Origin: Deltaproteobacteria bacterium
GTDB lineage: Bacteria; Desulfobacterota; Desulfobacteria; Desulfobacterales; SURF-15
Direction: 5' to 3'
Assembly (NCBI GenBank): GCA_024644775.1
Contig: JAHEHB010000012.1
Coordinates: 1 to 29,308, forward strand
DNA length: 29,308 bases
Below are positions 18,274-27,320 of the stretch, in pieces. The position numbers and the translations under genes are program-made. Under the pieces are notes generated by a model. That model was not told where the DNA came from, made no database searches, and saw only the letters and a list, made by a program, of their open reading frames with translations. How positions within the stretch are numbered: position 1 is the stretch's first letter; every line of letters starts with the position of its first letter.

Positions 18274-21200
18274 CTATAAATTACTTGTCCGGACCCGTTT
18301 CCGGAGCGATTGGGGAATGAAATAACCCACTTCGCCACCGGAAAATGGCAATTCCAGCTGCTCTTTGACCGCTGTCACCACATCTTCTACAAAAAAAAGA
18401 CCTTTTTCATCAGAGAACGTGCGGCAGTAAAACTCACCCCAACTTGTCGCATAGATCGCTGTATACTCGTGAAATTTATTTAAGTTTCGATTTAAATTAA
18501 AATTAATGACTAAAAATAGCTTATGCACATAGGGTTTTTTAAGAAGTGCTGTGGGAGGCAGGTTTTCTATTTCTTTTAACGGGAAAAATCCGTGCAAGAC
18601 TTTCACGAAATCAAGTATATCCTGAATCGAAATCGGTGTCGGATTCGGCATCAACTTAAGAGATGCCGTTGCTGTGAATAGATCATTACGAACCAACCAA
18701 ACGGCAATTTCTTCAATACGACCCAGCTCTTTTAGTATTTCATCGGAAGTCGGTATTTTTTGCTTACTTTTTTTCATATGATACAATTGCCAAAAGGCCG
18801 GCCCATTTCCGTTCGGGATATATTGTAAATAGAGTTGTTTAAATAAACGCTTCCCATGATCGATGAGGGGGAGTTTATCCACCTTATAAGGCTGTTTTGA
18901 AAACTGAACAAACATTTTACGCCCCAGAATCGTCAGGTCTTTCGGCGTAATCGTTATTTTCCCATCGGTCGATCGCTGTATTGACCGGCTCAGTTTTTCG
19001 TAGGTTCCTATCATGAATTGATTGATTCGATTGCTGAGCAGAAAGATCTTTTCAAACGGCCACTGTTCAAAGCTCCCGACCTCCTGGACCTTGGATTCAT
19101 CCCAACGCCAGCGTCCGATATAGTCTAACACAACGTCTTTTCGTGTCGGAATCACGGATGTGTTCAAATCCTTGATCGATCGGATTCCGAGTTTCAGAAA
19201 AAAACAGATTTGCAGCAATGATAGGATTTGTTTTCGTTTTGCCCTCTGGTAGTAATCGAATACCTCCTCAAACAGCACCAGGTAAGGATCCATTTGCTTA
19301 ATATTATACGTTCCGGATGCCCATTTAGCCTTTAGCCGATTGCACAAGAGGCCGCGTTGTTCGTCTTCCTGCATATATTTTTCCAAAAGGGCCATTTTGA
19401 CAACCGATTTGTAGGGATTTTTCAGGCTCTTTAATAACTGCCAGATAGAGGCGCCAAAATATTCTCCTCTGGGAATGGAAGAAACATTTCCAAGGTCGAG
19501 GTAATCTTTGTGGAAACGAGAGACAACCTTTAGAACGCTTTGATAATATGTCTCTTTTATCCATGGTGGAATCGCGCACCACAACGGAATCTTTCCGGCG
19601 ACCAGAATCATCGTGCGATAGAATTCCTCTTTAAGTATCTTTCCTTGGGCCGATCCCGAACTTTCCATATCACTTTCGCCGAAACGATCGTCGCGCACTG
19701 TCGACAGGTCAACAACAAAAAAGTGAAGTTCCGTGTGAAACGTCTTGGCGGCCCATTCCTCGATGGATGTGAGTTTTGCCTTGAGCCGTTTCAACGGTTC
19801 TTCTCCGAGTTTCGATTCGTCCACACAAATCCAATAATCGATATCGGAATCGACTGACTGTGCAATGGTTCCGATACTTCCAATGGTGTATATTCCCTCA
19901 ATCTGAGGCGCTTTTTCATGTAAAACGGTTGATTCATCAACCGTTACGTATTTTTTTAGCAATTGCAGAACCCTCGAGGAAGGGTAGTACCCAAAAATTC
20001 CTACCGGGGCATTTCGGATCGGACGATCATCAGGAAAAGATTCCAAATCGGAATGAATCAGCAACGGAATCAATTCAAACAGTGCTGCCTGTTCACGGGT
20101 AAAGGTATCGAGAGCAAGTTCGATTCGTTGGAAGTTGTAATCCAAAAAGGCGCGATGTGTTTTTTCCACTTCTTCCATGAGCATCAGAGACCCAAACCCA
20201 CCGGCTTTCGATGCCGTGTCGGTAAAAAAAACCGATGGTACCACGATATTATTAAACCGCGTGCTGCGCATGTGCAGGTTCGCCCCAAGTGTTGTTAGCG
20301 TTGAAAAATCAATACCTAAATAATCGCAATGGGTTGCTTTTACCAGAGAAAGGTCCGCAAAATTCATGTAGGCGAATTTGAAGACGGCCACGGACAACTC
20401 AGCGCCCAGAAAGGAGGATGCCGTGAGGTTAGAGCGGGAAAAATCGGTATTTGTAATATTTGCGCCCACAAAGAGCGAACCCTGCAGATTTGCGGAACCA
20501 AAATCCGAACCATATATGCGGCAGTTGGTAAAATCGCATCCGTTTAATGAAGTCTTTCGGGCGGTTATCGTATGAAAGACGGCATTTTCAAACGAAACGG
20601 AATCAAACACAGTATTCTCGAAATTAACATTTTCGAAACAGGCCCCTTTAAATGAAACCGAATCGAGTTTTGCGGACGAAAAATCCACGTTCGAAAAAAC
20701 AGCACCGCTAAAATCAACATTGACGAGATGGATACCTGATAGGTCGATTCCCGTGATGATTTCTCTTTGAAAAACCGCACCGGTAATGGATTCGCGGTTT
20801 ATTAGTTTCTTGAGGCCTTTTTTGCGTTTTCGTTCGGCGATTTTTTCCAGAAAACTCTTTTTGGGTAAGTGCGAATCCGGTATTTTCAGCGGATTGGCCT
20901 TGTCGAATGCGTTTGTTTCCAGTTGCTTGATCGATTCTGTCTCTTGGAGAAGTTTTTTGGCCTCGGTTTTGAGCTTGCTGTTTGTGCTCTTTACATAATG
21001 TTCTAAAAAGTGGGTCAGTTTTTCAGGGTCTTTTGCGAAAATCTGATGTGCGACAGCGGATCGTGCCATGCTTGCCTGATCCGGTGGCAAGGCATTAAAA
21101 AAAGAATTCCGTTCGATCCACTCAAACATTGTCAATGCCTGGTGAATGCTTTCCCTCATGGCGGGGTGATACTGATACAATTTGGATGCTGCTTTTCCTA

Positions 21201-22158
21201 AACCGACGGCTTTAAGTGAAACAAGCGCTTTGAAGGCATGCTGCATTATGTTTGTGTCGTCATCATCCAAAAGGGGCATCACCTTTTCGATAATGTCCGG
21301 ATGTTTCTGTACCTTCGATTTTGCGAGTAATTTTAAAAACTCGATACGAACTGCAATCGGCTCAGTCGAAGACAACAACCCACGAAATCCATTCGGGTGA
21401 TACGCGTTGCCAAGAACCAATGTGGCTTTTATCCCCTTTATCTTATCTTCCATTTTGTCGGACAGACATTCGTTTTTCAAAATAGATTCTTGAATCGCCG
21501 ATCCCTGACAAAGTGTGATAAATACGTCATCAAAAACAGAACCATGGTCAAATAGATAGGCCAAAAAAGAAACAATGGCATTGCGATCCCGAATGCCGTC
21601 AAGAAGTGTCCTTACGAAATGGGAATACTGCCGGCGAACCGATACCTGATCCAGGGTGTATTGATGGACGAGCACAAGTTGTAAGAATGCCGGAAATTTT
21701 TTTACCATCTCTACAAAAATGATTTCAGAAACAATACCCCGGCAAAAAAAATGCCATACGAGAATTGGGCCTCTTCCCCCGATTTTTAAAAGGGTAAGAC
21801 AAAACAACTCTATGAGAGCAAGATCTCGGGTCGACTGCATCTCCTTGTAAACAAACGCCGATAATTTACCCGTTTTTTCGATAATATTTTCCGGGATTTC
21901 CTGATTGTTGCCGGGTGATAGCACTGCCTGCCGAGAAAGTTTTTCAAAGGCTTTTTTCGCTTCTTCTCTGACGGATCGAATATAATCTTTTAAGCCGAGC
22001 ATAACCGGTCGAAGCCCTTCTTCGATATCGAGTCCGCCGGTAAACCGGATGATTTTCAGTTTTGATTGGAGATCAGCGTTTTTCCACCGCTGTTCTAATT
22101 CTTCTAACGAGACAGAGTCGTTGGGTGAAAGAGAAACCATTTTTTTCATAATTTTCAA
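18274..22158 (-). CDS. Multidomain class I adenylate cyclase: helical repeats, pentapeptide repeats, cyclase
   Basis: This protein has 1294 residues with three parts. Residues 20-440 are alpha-helical and HEAT-like (MQHAFKALVSLKAVG, KVMPLLDDDD). Residues 465-640 are a pentapeptide-repeat beta-helix, with many A(D/N)(L/F)xx steps such as NVDFSGAVFSNVDFSSAKL. Residues 670 to about 1290 match class I adenylate cyclase (enterobacterial CyaA type): GIYTIGSIGTIAQSVDSDID with nucleotidyltransferase G760-S761 and Asp772/Asp774, then EEFYRTMILVAGK, YLDLGNVSSIPRGEYFGASIWQLLKSLKNPYKSVVK, and a C-terminal part with WGEFYCR. It should make cAMP from ATP. The start is uncertain: TTG 22158, ATG 22149 or ATG 22140, none with a good ribosome binding site. 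The N-terminal half has no counterpart in CyaA and may sense or scaffold. Confidence 0.85.
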   Translation of the reverse strand: MKIMKKMVSLSPNDSVSLEELEQRWKNADLQSKLKIIRFTGGLDIEEGLRPVMLGLKDYIRSVREEAKKAFEKLSRQAVLSPGNNQEIPENIIEKTGKLSAFVYKEMQSTRDLALIELFCLTLLKIGGRGPILVWHFFCRGIVSEIIFVEMVKKFPAFLQLVLVHQYTLDQVSVRRQYSHFVRTLLDGIRDRNAIVSFLAYLFDHGSVFDDVFITLCQGSAIQESILKNECLSDKMEDKIKGIKATLVLGNAYHPNGFRGLLSSTEPIAVRIEFLKLLAKSKVQKHPDIIEKVMPLLDDDDTNIMQHAFKALVSLKAVGLGKAASKLYQYHPAMRESIHQALTMFEWIERNSFFNALPPDQASMARSAVAHQIFAKDPEKLTHFLEHYVKSTNSKLKTEAKKLLQETESIKQLETNAFDKANPLKIPDSHLPKKSFLEKIAERKRKKGLKKLINRESITGAVFQREIITGIDLSGIHLVNVDFSGAVFSNVDFSSAKLDSVSFKGACFENVNFENTVFDSVSFENAVFHTITARKTSLNGCDFTNCRIYGSDFGSANLQGSLFVGANITNTDFSRSNLTASSFLGAELSVAVFKFAYMNFADLSLVKATHCDYLGIDFSTLTTLGANLHMRSTRFNNIVVPSVFFTDTASKAGGFGSLMLMEEVEKTHRAFLDYNFQRIELALDTFTREQAALFELIPLLIHSDLESFPDDRPIRNAPVGIFGYYPSSRVLQLLKKYVTVDESTVLHEKAPQIEGIYTIGSIGTIAQSVDSDIDYWICVDESKLGEEPLKRLKAKLTSIEEWAAKTFHTELHFFVVDLSTVRDDRFGESDMESSGSAQGKILKEEFYRTMILVAGKIPLWCAIPPWIKETYYQSVLKVVSRFHKDYLDLGNVSSIPRGEYFGASIWQLLKSLKNPYKSVVKMALLEKYMQEDEQRGLLCNRLKAKWASGTYNIKQMDPYLVLFEEVFDYYQRAKRKQILSLLQICFFLKLGIRSIKDLNTSVIPTRKDVVLDYIGRWRWDESKVQEVGSFEQWPFEKIFLLSNRINQFMIGTYEKLSRSIQRSTDGKITITPKDLTILGRKMFVQFSKQPYKVDKLPLIDHGKRLFKQLYLQYIPNGNGPAFWQLYHMKKSKQKIPTSDEILKELGRIEEIAVWLVRNDLFTATASLKLMPNPTPISIQDILDFVKVLHGFFPLKEIENLPPTALLKKPYVHKLFLVINFNLNRNLNKFHEYTAIYATSWGEFYCRTFSDEKGLFFVEDVVTAVKEQLELPFSGGEVGYFIPQSLRKRVRTSNL

Positions 22159-25825: not shown

Positions 25826-25982
25826 GATATTTGTTCCTATCAATAGTATTAAAAGTTTTCTGCGCAGCATTTGGAAAGCGTTGCTAACGGACACTATTAT
25901 CTTTTTATCCTTTGTGAATCAAATGTCAATATTTAGACGAATATCGATTCCGAACACGATTATTATTGGCCTATAAAAAAGC

Positions 25983-26011
25983 TTGACAGCGATGGTCGAA
26001 TCATATATAAA
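25983..26011 (+). promoter_or_regulatory. Consensus sigma-70 promoter of the DAHP synthase attenuator
   Basis: A perfect TTGACA -35 box (25983-25988) is followed, after exactly 17 nt, by TATAAA (26006-26011), five of six positions of the consensus -10. Transcription should begin near 26018, about 30 nt before the leader peptide start codon. It is the clearest promoter in the window. Confidence 0.8.
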
Positions 26012-26048
26012 AGACTAACTTTTAAAAATAAATTGGGAAATTTCTGTT

Positions 26049-26099
26049 ATGGTACATACCTTTTTTGGCAGCTTTTTTGGGTTTTTTTATTATTGCTAA
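26049..26099 (+). CDS. Phe/Tyr-rich attenuator leader peptide of the DAHP synthase gene
   Basis: The 16-codon frame MVHTFFGSFFGFFYYC runs from ATG 26049 to TAA 26099. It contains six Phe codons (three TTT pairs) and two consecutive Tyr codons (TAT TAT). A GGGA lies about 10 nt before the ATG. It lies between a consensus promoter and an intrinsic terminator, upstream of the aromatic pathway's first enzyme, exactly where a leader peptide of the PheL type is expected. Ribosome stalling when charged tRNA-Phe or tRNA-Tyr is scarce should free downstream RNA to form the antiterminator. It has no sequence identity with PheL beyond composition. Confidence 0.85.
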   Translation: MVHTFFGSFFGFFYYC

Positions 26100-26159
26100 A
26101 CCCGATTTGTCTGCCTGGGGTGTGTAACACTTAACATAAAAATTAAAAGCCGCCGGCAG
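26067..26159 (+). promoter_or_regulatory. Attenuator pairing segments (1:2 and 2:3) in the DAHP synthase leader
   Basis: Segment 1, inside the leader peptide, has GGCAG (26067-26071) and GGGTTT (26079-26084). Segment 2, after the leader stop, has AAACCC (26098-26103) and CTGCC (26111-26115), so 1:2 can form a two-part hairpin. CTGCC can instead pair with GGCAG of segment 3 (26155-26159), which is part of the terminator stem. Pairing of 2:3, extended by GG:CC with a bulge, would block the terminator. These mutually exclusive helices complete the classic attenuator arrangement. Confidence 0.7.
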
Positions 26160-26187
26160 CCAACGCCTGCGGCTTTTTTATTTTTTT
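26145..26187 (+). terminator. Intrinsic terminator of the attenuator (segments 3:4)
   Basis: AAAAGCCGC (26145-26153) pairs with GCGGCTTTT (26169-26177). After a mismatch, GGC (26155-26157) pairs with GCC (26165-26167) around a 7-nt loop. The stem is followed by a run of T interrupted by one A (to 26187). It ends about 30 nt before the DAHP synthase start, so it controls read-through into the gene rather than ending an upstream gene. Confidence 0.88.
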
Positions 26188-26216
26188 ATGACCACCTAAA
26201 TAGGAGGACACGAATC

Positions 26217-27320
26217 ATGAAAAAGACATACGATGTGCATGTGGAAGAGTTCGTTCCGCTGATTTCGCCAAACACCTTAAAGAATGAAATCCCACTCGCT
26301 AAAACGGAAATGGAAACGGTGACGTCGGCTAGGGAAACCATTGGAAAAATTTTAAGAAAAGAAGACAAACGCCTTTTGGTTGTAGTGGGACCCTGTTCAA
26401 TACACGATGAAGCGGCTGCTTTAGACTATGGAAAAAAGTTAAATACGCTGCAAAAGCAGGTCGAAGAAACGCTTTTCCTCGTCATGCGAGTTTATTTTGA
26501 AAAGCCCCGCACGACAGTGGGTTGGAAGGGCTTAATAAATGATCCCTGTATGGATAGCACGTGCGACATGATGGCGGGGTTGCGAAAAGCGCGGCAGCTT
26601 TTGTTAGACATCGTTACGATGGGACTGCCCACTGCCACCGAAATGCTCGATCCGATTACTCCCCAATATATCGACGGTCTGGTTTGCTGGGCTGCCATCG
26701 GGGCAAGAACCATCGAATCTCAAACACACCGTGAAATGGCAAGCGGTCTTTCCATGCCCATCGGATTTAAAAACTGCACAGATGGAGAATTGGATACCGC
26801 CATTAACGGAATCGTTGCCGCCCGATCGCCACAGAGTTTTTTGGGGATCAATCAAGACGGCCAAACCGCTATTGTAAAGACCACCGGCAATCCTTGGACG
26901 CATATTGTTTTGCGGGGGGGGAAAAGACCAAACTACGATTCGGTAAGCATTGCGGAGGCTCGGCGCATGCTAAAAGAAAATGGATTGCCGGAGGCCATCA
27001 TGGTGGACTGTTCCCATGCAAATTCCAGAAAAAAGCATCAGGGGCAGGCGGTTGTTTGGCAGGATGTCATCAACCAGCGACTGGATGGAAACGATGCATT
27101 GATTGGATTGATGTTGGAAAGTAATCTTTATGAAGGCAGCCAAAAAATCTCCGATGATTTATCGACACTTAAATACGGGATTTCCATCACCGATGAATGC
27201 ATCTCCTGGGAAACCACCGTAAAACTACTTTTATCCGCTCACAACCAACTGTCAAAATATTTCCGTGTAGAATCAGATATCGATAAACCACATGATATAA
27301 AACGTTATTCGGTCGTATAG
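26217..27320 (+). CDS. aroG: 3-deoxy-7-phosphoheptulonate (DAHP) synthase, AroG/AroF type
   Basis: This 367-residue class I-alpha DAHP synthase condenses phosphoenolpyruvate and erythrose 4-phosphate, the first step to Phe, Tyr and Trp. Conserved segments are LLVVVGPCSIHDEAAALDY, MRVYFEKPRTTVGWKGLINDP, ATEMLDPITPQYIDGLVCWAAIGARTIESQTHREMASGLSMPIGFKN (split here only by eye), HIVLRGGKRPNYD and MVDCSHANSRKKH, carrying the metal Cys/His and substrate Lys/Arg residues. The N-terminal extension typical of feedback-inhibited AroF/G/H enzymes is present. AGGAGG lies about 9 nt before ATG 26217. The gene follows a Phe/Tyr-codon leader peptide and terminator, which suggests it is the Phe- or Tyr-responsive isozyme; the symbol is approximate between aroG and aroF. 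Confidence 0.93.
   Translation: MKKTYDVHVEEFVPLISPNTLKNEIPLAKTEMETVTSARETIGKILRKEDKRLLVVVGPCSIHDEAAALDYGKKLNTLQKQVEETLFLVMRVYFEKPRTTVGWKGLINDPCMDSTCDMMAGLRKARQLLLDIVTMGLPTATEMLDPITPQYIDGLVCWAAIGARTIESQTHREMASGLSMPIGFKNCTDGELDTAINGIVAARSPQSFLGINQDGQTAIVKTTGNPWTHIVLRGGKRPNYDSVSIAEARRMLKENGLPEAIMVDCSHANSRKKHQGQAVVWQDVINQRLDGNDALIGLMLESNLYEGSQKISDDLSTLKYGISITDECISWETTVKLLLSAHNQLSKYFRVESDIDKPHDIKRYSVV

What the first reader, a model, noticed from the sequence alone, without database searches (positions are those of the whole stretch)
25983..26217. Complete aromatic amino-acid attenuator ahead of DAHP synthase
The sequence shows every part in order: a TTGACA-17-TATAAA promoter, a 16-codon leader peptide with six Phe and two Tyr codons, segment 1 GGCAG plus GGGTTT inside the leader, segment 2 AAACCC plus CTGCC after its stop, segment 3 GGCAG, and a GC-rich 3:4 stem with a T-run 30 nt before the gene. 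Attenuation by Phe-rich leaders is established for pheA/pheST in enterobacteria. Finding it on a DAHP synthase gene in an apparent deltaproteobacterium, with both Phe and Tyr codons, would be a distinct and testable case.
Basis: partly seen in the sequence, partly recalled or inferred. Interest (0 to 1): 0.8.

Follow-up and report, generated by a model that had tools for sequence, protein, structure and literature searches.

The report
Aromatic amino-acid sensing leader switch
A short RNA stretch ahead of the first gene for making aromatic amino acids looks like a switch that senses phenylalanine and tyrosine supply through a tiny peptide; relatives carry the same switch ahead of a different, unrelated enzyme for the same job, often with a second stop signal that seems wired to the first.

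Summary
Window 26049-26099 encodes MVHTFFGSFFGFFYYC*, followed by an intrinsic terminator and an aroFGH-type DAHP synthase. It is not a one-off: of 198 distinct upstreams of aroFGH matches, 155 have a Phe/Tyr/Trp-rich leader plus terminator, and pairings 1:2, 2:3 and 3:4 covary. A covariance model of the element hits 177 of 192 genomes of the class. Of the 150 hits listed, 67 precede aroFGH and 68 precede the non-homologous archaeal-type entry enzyme (ADH synthase); the two enzymes almost exclude each other. Further hits precede pheA, DAHPS-prephenate dehydratase fusions, two tyrS copies and shikimate kinase. Leader codons follow the product: mixed for entry enzymes, Phe for the fusions, Tyr for tyrS. 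In 47 of 155 aroFGH copies and 41 of 46 ADH copies a second terminator follows, whose 5' arm covaries with the 3' arm of the first: a probable relay. The window's copy has one terminator and a rare layout, its stop codon ahead of segment 2. Response to Phe/Tyr is inferred, not measured. DAHP synthase attenuators are in print for Corynebacterium and Acholeplasma.

The parts
25983..26011 (+). putative sigma-70 promoter TTGACA-17-TATAAA
   Evidence: sequence; not listed by the consensus scan, whose rule demands T at the last -10 position
26049..26099 (+). leader peptide ORF MVHTFFGSFFGFFYYC* (6 Phe, 2 Tyr codons)
   Evidence: C-terminal FGSFFGF(F)YYC* shared with L001; one of 155 leaders with terminator
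26067..26071 (+). segment 1 core GGCAG (Gly-Ser codons), with GGGTTT at 26079-26084
   Evidence: 1:2 covariation in relatives
26111..26115 (+). segment 2 core CTGCC, with AAACCC at 26098-26103
   Evidence: 1:2 and 2:3 covariation in relatives
26155..26159 (+). segment 3 core GGCAG, within the 5' arm of the terminator
   Evidence: pairs with segment 2 in a prefix fold that lacks segment 4
26145..26187 (+). intrinsic terminator: hairpin 26145-26177 (3:4) and T-run 26174-26187
   Evidence: -19.0 kcal/mol alone
26041..26181 (+). extent of the covariance-model match (R1, 89.5 bits; the model was trained with this copy among 68)
26217..27320 (+). regulated gene: 3-deoxy-7-phosphoheptulonate (DAHP) synthase, aroFGH type

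Best explanation
A ribosome-mediated transcription attenuator that sets DAHP synthase output by aromatic amino acid supply. RNA polymerase makes the leader; a ribosome follows on the leader ORF. With enough Phe-tRNA and Tyr-tRNA the ribosome finishes, segment 1 pairs with segment 2, segment 3 is free, terminator 3:4 forms and transcription stops before the gene. With too little, the ribosome stalls on the Phe/Tyr codons and covers segment 1; 2 pairs with 3 as the nascent chain emerges, the terminator cannot form and the gene is transcribed. The element belongs to a family that serves an aromatic regulon in Desulfobacterota, with leader codons matched to the product. In many relatives a second terminator 5:6 follows and is coupled to the first through pairing 4:5, so one ribosome decision sets both. 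Shown: parts, conservation, covariation of 1:2, 2:3, 3:4, 4:5 and 5:6, codon match to target. Inferred: translation of the leader, stalling, termination, amino acid response, and that 4:5 forms in the cell.
For: 155 of 198 distinct upstreams of aroFGH matches have leader + terminator; the 20 more distant DAHP synthases L096-L115 (48-58% identity) have none. Own-locus against permuted duplex energy on 69 dereplicated leaders: 1:2 z -12.0, 2:3 z -6.9, 3:4 z -14.8, each 0/5000; control 1:3 reaches 1324/5000. Pair counts on 68 rows: 2:3 84.3% (slid 27-49%), 1:2 80.2% (slid 23-45%), 3:4 94.1% (slid 36-50%); cells changed on both sides 42, 24 and 46 against 11, 7 and 15 in shuffles, 0/500 each. Codon match to target. 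Same element ahead of ADH synthase. In the window, RNA from 26086 without segment 4 folds into 2:3 at -15.8 kcal/mol.
Against: No expression data. In the window 2:3 (-10.9 as a duplex; -15.8 in the prefix fold) is weaker than the terminator (-19.0), and once segment 4 is present the minimum-energy fold has the terminator even when the leader is masked, so antitermination needs kinetic capture. The window's leader stop lies ahead of segment 2, a layout found in 3 of 155 (window, L001, L231), and only a weak Shine-Dalgarno match is seen by eye. A longer -1-frame ORF (TTG 26033, 33 codons) overlaps the leader. Control 2:4 is mildly low (z -1.9, 151/5000). For 2:3 two of the five count measures do not beat shuffles (pairs with a change on both sides 84/500, further pair types 302/500). 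Of the 37 upstreams without a leader, 17 are not from the distant group, among them close relatives L006 (69%) and L008 (68%).
Confidence: 0.9

Rival explanations
1. The terminator is constitutive (for example an insulator ahead of the gene) and the Phe-rich ORF is a by-product of T-rich sequence.
For: T-rich DNA gives TTT codons easily: 207 and 226 of 5000 shuffles have an ATG ORF with at least 5 F/Y/W at density 0.35 or more.
Against: An ORF as rich as this one arises in 6 and 4 of 5000 shuffles; leader and pairings are conserved and covary across the class; codons follow the target gene's product.
Confidence: 0.03
2. The switch senses something else (a free metabolite, an uncharged tRNA as in a T-box, or a protein) and the leader ORF is incidental.
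For: No direct sensing data; the 1:2 hairpin is long and stable.
Against: No Rfam family in the window at gathering score and no riboswitch or T-box among the 10 matches up to E 1 in 25950-26260. Leaders change F/Y/W shares by target (95% Phe for 6 DAHPS-PDT copies, 61% for 21 pheA, 100% Tyr for 2 tyrS), which a non-translated sensor would not need.
Confidence: 0.05
3. For the tandem relatives: the second terminator is only a redundant back-up, or a duplicate of the first, and 4:5 complementarity is a by-product of similar GC-rich arms.
For: Arms share GCCG/CGGC motifs and CCGCGG is a palindrome, so much complementarity comes free (permuted 4:5 is already -13.2 kcal/mol). T2 is gained or lost many times on the DAHP synthase tree (22 changes, at least 9 forced). 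In the second set two control pairings also fall below their permutations (3:5 85/5000, 4:6 17/5000). In the pair counts two measures are reached by some shuffles (27/500 and 37/500). E45 is stronger than E56 in only 4 of 33.
Against: Own-locus 4:5 beats permuted in both sets (47 aroFGH: z -6.5, 0/5000; 48 others: z -5.8, 0/5000) while 3:6, which a duplicate would keep equally, does not (3214/5000 and 1156/5000); E45 is stronger than E36 in 40 of 47 and 44 of 48. Pair counts for 4:5 on 37 rows: 93.5% against 44-54% slid, 17 cells changed on both sides against 4.1 in shuffles, 0/500.
Confidence: 0.3
4. The working leader of the window is the overlapping -1 frame ORF from TTG 26033 (MGNFCYGTYLFWQLFWVFLLLLNPICLPGVCNT), which like most relatives runs through segment 2 (LPGVC) and holds Trp codons.
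For: It restores the usual ...LPGVC ending and has 8 F/Y/W codons.
Against: L001 shares the ATG frame's ...FGSFFGF(F)YYC* ending and differs by a whole-codon indel (which keeps both frames); TTG start without a clear Shine-Dalgarno; GGCAG is read as Gly-Ser only in the ATG frame, as in relatives.
Confidence: 0.1

Closest known systems
Phe_leader, Rfam RF01859 (Phenylalanine leader peptide)
   Same: Phe-rich leader peptide and terminator before an aromatic gene; of the 10 subthreshold Rfam matches here it has the lowest E-value (0.0094, 27.7 bits, full model length).
   Different: Well below the gathering score (55 bits); different gene and segments, mixed Phe/Tyr(/Trp) codons; none of 20 relatives reaches any Rfam gathering score among matches up to E 0.1.
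C. glutamicum aroF leader (PMC4046766, passages read)
   Same: Leader peptide (Phe-Tyr-Phe) and putative attenuator ahead of a DAHP synthase.
   Different: Actinobacterium, other leader; no tandem terminator or shared element in the passages read.
uORFC-13-1 motif (PMC8632094, passages read)
   Same: uORF with U-run/Phe codons and a terminator exclusively ahead of aroF (DAHP synthase).
   Different: Acholeplasma and unplaced environmental sequences, 24 representatives; response only proposed there too.
his operon attenuator with six alternating segments A-F (recalled, not read here)
   Same: A chain of alternating pairings in which each segment has two partners.
   Different: As recalled it has a single terminator at the end; here both 3:4 and 5:6 carry U-runs.
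Salmonella mgtCBR tandem attenuators (PMC3641672, abstract and outline)
   Same: More than one control hairpin in one leader.
   Different: Two ORFs and two signals; here one ORF and two coupled terminators (two ORFs seen only in L397/L398).
rimP-leader tandem terminators (PMC2965389, passages)
   Same: Two terminators in tandem in a leader, with a potential antiterminator.
   Different: No coupling of arms 4 and 5 described in the passage read; not an amino acid gene.

Membership tests
Ribosome-mediated (classical) transcription attenuator | short leader ORF rich in codons for the pathway's product | tested here: met
   16 codons, 6 Phe + 2 Tyr; 155 copies with leader and terminator, the window among them
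Ribosome-mediated (classical) transcription attenuator | mutually exclusive pairings 1:2, 2:3, 3:4 | tested here: met
Ribosome-mediated (classical) transcription attenuator | 3:4 is an intrinsic terminator just before the structural gene | tested here: met
   T-run ends 30 nt before ATG
Ribosome-mediated (classical) transcription attenuator | leader is translated and read-through rises on starvation for the amino acid | not testable with these tools
   needs expression data; codon match to target is indirect support
Phe_leader RF01859 | covariance-model score at or above gathering (55 bits) | tested here: not met
   27.7 bits; none at gathering
T-box (RF00230) | T-box covariance model match | tested here: not met
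   no match at gathering in the window nor up to E 1 in 25950-26260
Tandem-terminator relay (4:5 coupled) variant seen in relatives | second terminator 5:6 after T1, arm 5 complementary to arm 4 | tested here: not met
   window and L001 show one terminator only; a second terminator is called in 47 of 155 aroFGH copies and 48 of 59 others
uORFC-13-1 (Acholeplasma aroF motif) | consensus structure of that motif | not tested
   consensus figure not available in the library; passages only

The most novel reading that the evidence does not exclude
In Desulfobacterota one leader-peptide switch is the shared controller of an aromatic regulon. It is attached to whichever of two non-homologous, nearly mutually exclusive pathway-entry enzymes a genome has (DAHP synthase or ADH synthase), with codons retuned per target. 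In many copies it works as a two-stage relay: one ribosome decision flips 2:3, which frees arm 4, which takes arm 5 and so disarms a second terminator, multiplying the tightness of the off state without losing the on state.
Probability: 0.6. Interest if true: 0.75.

Novelty: new variant of a known kind. Interest (0 to 1): 0.62.

Why it matters
It gives a case in which an enzyme step was replaced by unrelated chemistry while its RNA switch stayed or moved with it, and a natural series of leaders whose codons track the product of the downstream gene. If the 4:5 coupling works, it is a simple design for tightening an attenuator: two terminators under one sensor. It also supplies a searchable model for regulation in a large, little studied phylum.

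Tried and rejected
Whole genome of the window: not held. Rfam: no family at gathering score (for 20 relatives, matches up to E 0.1 only); subthreshold matches (MicC, STnc40, Thr_leader, trpB motif and others) were treated as chance or shared terminator shape.

T2 as a plain duplicate of T1: rejected because 3:6 shows no own-locus excess while 4:5 does. The first energy run trimmed arms badly and is superseded. After strict dereplication of the first, smaller set (13 rows) 4:5 was only 53/2000, which is why more loci were fetched; with 17 strictly dereplicated rows it is 9/5000. The state energies printed (pre23 and the sums) start 30 nt before the stop and in the window include part of 1:2; they are not used.

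tyrS as a regular target: not supported. Of 30 further tyrS loci one (L431, G316) has a Tyr-rich leader (28.3 bits; read; ORF scan of all 30); with L281 (G406) that makes two. A first reading overlooked L431; it was found on re-checking. L369 (39.6 bits) looks like a false positive beside a tRNA-like stretch. aroC (L387) lies 622 nt downstream and is unsure. Two targets, an acetate--CoA ligase-like protein (L382, L383; below its curated cut-off, protein cut short) and an ABC binding protein (L394), are unexplained.

Rows dropped: L034 and L077 of 80 loci (no upstream); 64 of 262 upstreams as duplicates; 6 of 198 with an ORF of at least 5 F/Y/W but no T1 (L051, L062, L240 look real; L169, L243, L255 spurious) and 37 without (one, L003_1, is a second hit in one locus); L041 left out of alignment A2, 68 of 69 rows; A1 uses 37 of 47 tandem copies; L267 (contig end) left out from then on; L372-L376 and L322-L351 not analysed for downstream genes; L359 (leader call failed), L431 and the 5 further aroFGH rows are not in the comparison. 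Of the 150 listed model hits 5 are unassigned (G384, G449, G425, G350, G369). Gene classes were set by sequence motif or by reading; 10 proteins were checked by NCBIfam and 4 by Pfam; of the 6 DAHPS-PDT copies only L362 was. Tandem counts are lower bounds: the detector missed for instance a likely T2 in L010. Model R1 was trained on aroFGH copies only; its E-values are rough.

Full report
What is there. Window 25983-26217 holds, in order, a TTGACA-17-TATAAA promoter-like site, a 16-codon ORF with six Phe and two Tyr codons (26049-26099), the complementary segments GGCAG/GGGTTT and AAACCC/CTGCC, a GC-rich hairpin with a T-run (26145-26187) and, 30 nt on, an aroFGH-type DAHP synthase. The stretch 26018-26190 folds better than all of 200 shuffles (z -4.26), and an ATG ORF as rich in F/Y/W arises in 6 or 4 (recount) of 5000 shuffles.

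Conservation. A scan of one genome per species gave 80 loci of close DAHP synthases (141 stretches matched, the best 80 kept), most titled Desulfobacterales or Deltaproteobacteria. Of 79 upstreams examined (window + 78), 75 have a short ORF with at least 5 F/Y/W codons, 73 of them with a terminator. The more distant DAHP synthases L096-L115 (48-58% identity) have none of 20, a natural negative control; the other 17 without a leader include close relatives such as L006 and L008. Most leaders have a Gly-Ser/Gly-Arg ahead of an F/Y/W run and end in or near LPGVR*: the Gly-Ser/Arg codons carry segment 1 (CAGGCAG) and Leu-Pro-Gly carries segment 2 (CTGCCTG).

Pairings. Own-locus duplex energies against permuted partners, 69 dereplicated leaders: 1:2 z -12.0, 2:3 z -6.9, 3:4 z -14.8 (0/5000 each); controls 1:3 z -0.6 (1324/5000), 2:4 z -1.9 (151/5000). 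Column counts on 68 rows (L041 dropped): 2:3 84.3% standard pairs, 1:2 80.2%, 3:4 94.1%, against 23-50% for slid versions; cells changed on both sides exceed all 500 shuffles in each, while for 2:3 the number of such pairs (84/500) and of further pair types (302/500) does not stand out. Taken together the three alternative helices of a classical attenuator are under selection.

Layout of the window's copy. In 152 of 155 copies the 2:3 part of segment 2 begins before the end of the leader's stop codon (median -21 to -6 nt relative to it); in window, L001 and L231 it lies after the stop. A ribosome at the usual stop would cover segment 2; in the window it would just miss it, so off-state termination there should rest on release and 1:2 re-pairing (inference). 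Prefix folding with the leader masked up to 26085 and segment 4 not yet made gives 2:3 at -15.8; the complete terminator alone is -19.0, and the full masked RNA folds with the terminator. Antitermination is thus a kinetic capture.

Regulon. A covariance model from the 68 DAHP synthase leaders finds a match at E <= 0.01 in 177 of 192 genomes of the class, in 38 of 39 of one family at E <= 0.05 and in 81 of 247 of the phylum at E <= 1e-4. In the same 192 genomes aroFGH is found in 77 and 2-amino-3,7-dideoxy-D-threo-hept-6-ulosonate (ADH) synthase over cut-off in 98; 4 have both and 21 neither (Fisher p 2e-28). The answer lists 150 hits and says that more exist. Of the 150, 67 lie within 500 nt ahead of aroFGH; 68 lie 46-254 nt ahead of an ADH synthase gene on its strand, in 68 genomes of which 3 (G406, G440, G477) have both enzymes; 9 are ahead of pheA-like genes, 1 ahead of tyrS, 5 unassigned. 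The two best hits (G391, G344; 118 bits) are ahead of ADH synthase although the model saw no such copy in training. In 4 of 5 ADH operons whose ORFs were printed the order is ADH synthase, a second enzyme of about 330-365 aa (by position and sequence a DHQ synthase II; recalled, not run through a family search), then a pheA-like gene; in L265 an EPSP-synthase-like gene is third. So the same switch stands before two non-homologous enzymes for entry into the pathway.

Other targets and codons. NCBIfam on representatives: pheA (L276, L352), tyrS (L281), DAHP synthase I-beta (L389), shikimate kinase (L386, below the curated cut-offs), and a DAHP synthase I-beta (L362) that Pfam shows fused to prephenate dehydratase. 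Leader F/Y/W shares: aroFGH 0.41/0.53/0.06 (n 155), ADH synthase 0.43/0.50/0.07 (51), pheA 0.61/0.33/0.06 (21), DAHPS-PDT 0.95/0.05/0 (6), DAHPS I-beta unfused 0.30/0.55/0.15 (4), shikimate kinase 0.41/0.44/0.16 (4). Phe share of pheA leaders against entry enzymes: Mann-Whitney p 6.7e-8; Trp codons in 102 of 206 entry leaders against 2 of 21 pheA leaders if a terminal Leu-Trp is set aside (10 of 21 if not). Two tyrS copies have Tyr-only leaders: L281 (7 Tyr, no Phe or Trp) and L431 (MTHYMVANQIYYYCGYCPYPAAVVLLS, TTG start, 6 Tyr, no Phe or Trp, two hairpins with T-runs behind it). The other 29 of the 30 tyrS loci scanned have no such leader. L281 and L431 come from G406 and G316, the only two of 39 genomes with two tyrS matches.

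Relay. In 47 of 155 aroFGH copies and 48 of 59 other copies (41 of 46 ADH, 4 of 9 pheA, 1 of 1 tyrS, 2 of 3 unclassed) a second terminator follows the first, in the aroFGH set 11-20 nt after the core of T1. Arm 4 (3' arm of T1) is complementary to arm 5 (5' arm of T2). aroFGH set: 4:5 z -6.5, 0/5000; dereplicated to 37: z -6.1; to 17: 9/5000; the duplication control 3:6 is null (3214/5000) and E45 is stronger than E36 in 40 of 47. Other set (other genes): 4:5 z -5.8, 0/5000, 3:6 1156/5000, E45 stronger than E36 in 44 of 48; there 3:5 (85/5000) and 4:6 (17/5000) are also mildly low, so permutation counts are not to be read as probabilities. Pair counts on 37 rows: 93.5% against 44-54% slid; the pair at columns 8:38 is GC in 15, GU in 13, AU in 7, other in 2; pairs with changes on both sides are matched by 27 of 500 shuffles, cells with such changes by none. 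The simplest reading is a six-segment relay with two terminators under one ribosome. On the DAHP synthase tree of 124 rows the second terminator is gained or lost repeatedly (22 changes, at least 9 forced; labels include detector misses) and window + L001 form a supported pair without it.

What is known. DAHP synthase leaders with Phe/Tyr codons are in print for C. glutamicum (PMC4046766) and Acholeplasma (PMC8632094, which also cites the E. coli aroF proposal), and an aroF prediction for Shewanella (PMC2659441); passages read. Searches for leader peptide/attenuation with Desulfobact*, with deltaproteobacteria and aromatic amino acid, with sulfate-reducing and regulon, and with tandem, two or second terminators gave no paper on this family or on a coupled pair of terminators among what was listed (in one search the 15 listed of 165; the one paper was not opened). 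Only open-licence papers are searched; the standard comparative study of proteobacterial attenuators (Vitreschak et al. 2004, seen only in a reference list) could not be read and may bear on this.

Verdict. The window's element is a sound, new member of a known kind. The family it opens, with product-matched codons, two interchangeable entry enzymes and a probable two-terminator relay, is a new variant of that kind. No step of the mechanism has been measured.

Noticed in passing
L397 260-409 and about 465-588; L398 1501-1647 and downstream: Two leader peptides in a row, each aromatic-rich, in one leader (for example MGSSYYFGFFYFFAGRGLPMG then ...YGYFYFFTGRGPPVG...); the model finds the second one in L397 too (32.7 bits).
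   Followed up: partly
L382 1501-1642 and L383 1501-1639: The element with leaders such as MQVYYYYYYYYTKGRNLPAY lies ahead of an acetate--CoA ligase alpha-subunit-like protein (below the curated cut-off, protein cut short), not an obvious aromatic biosynthesis gene.
   Followed up: partly
L362-L366, L368: DAHP synthase I-beta fused to a prephenate dehydratase domain (checked in L362 only), preceded by almost purely Phe leaders (...FGRFFFFFRSVHPV).
   Followed up: partly
L281 (G406:C61) and L431 (G316:C1): Tyr-only leaders ahead of one of two tyrS copies in each of the two genomes that have two tyrS matches; the other copy of G406 (L412) has none.
   Followed up: yes
G411:C302, G474:C1, G497:C1: Two aroFGH-like genes in tandem about 1.1-1.2 kb apart on the same strand; no leader with terminator called ahead of the second in G474 and G497 (L243, L242).
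   Followed up: partly
window 18274-22158 (-): Class-I adenylate cyclase domains (PF01295, PF12633) in a 1294-aa protein with a pentapeptide-repeat region ahead of them, which looks unusual.
   Followed up: no
94 aroFGH loci with leader and full gene: Leaders favour TTT and TAT (290:72 over TTC and 329:81 over TAC) far more than the DAHP synthase genes behind them (346:249 and 385:374).
   Followed up: partly
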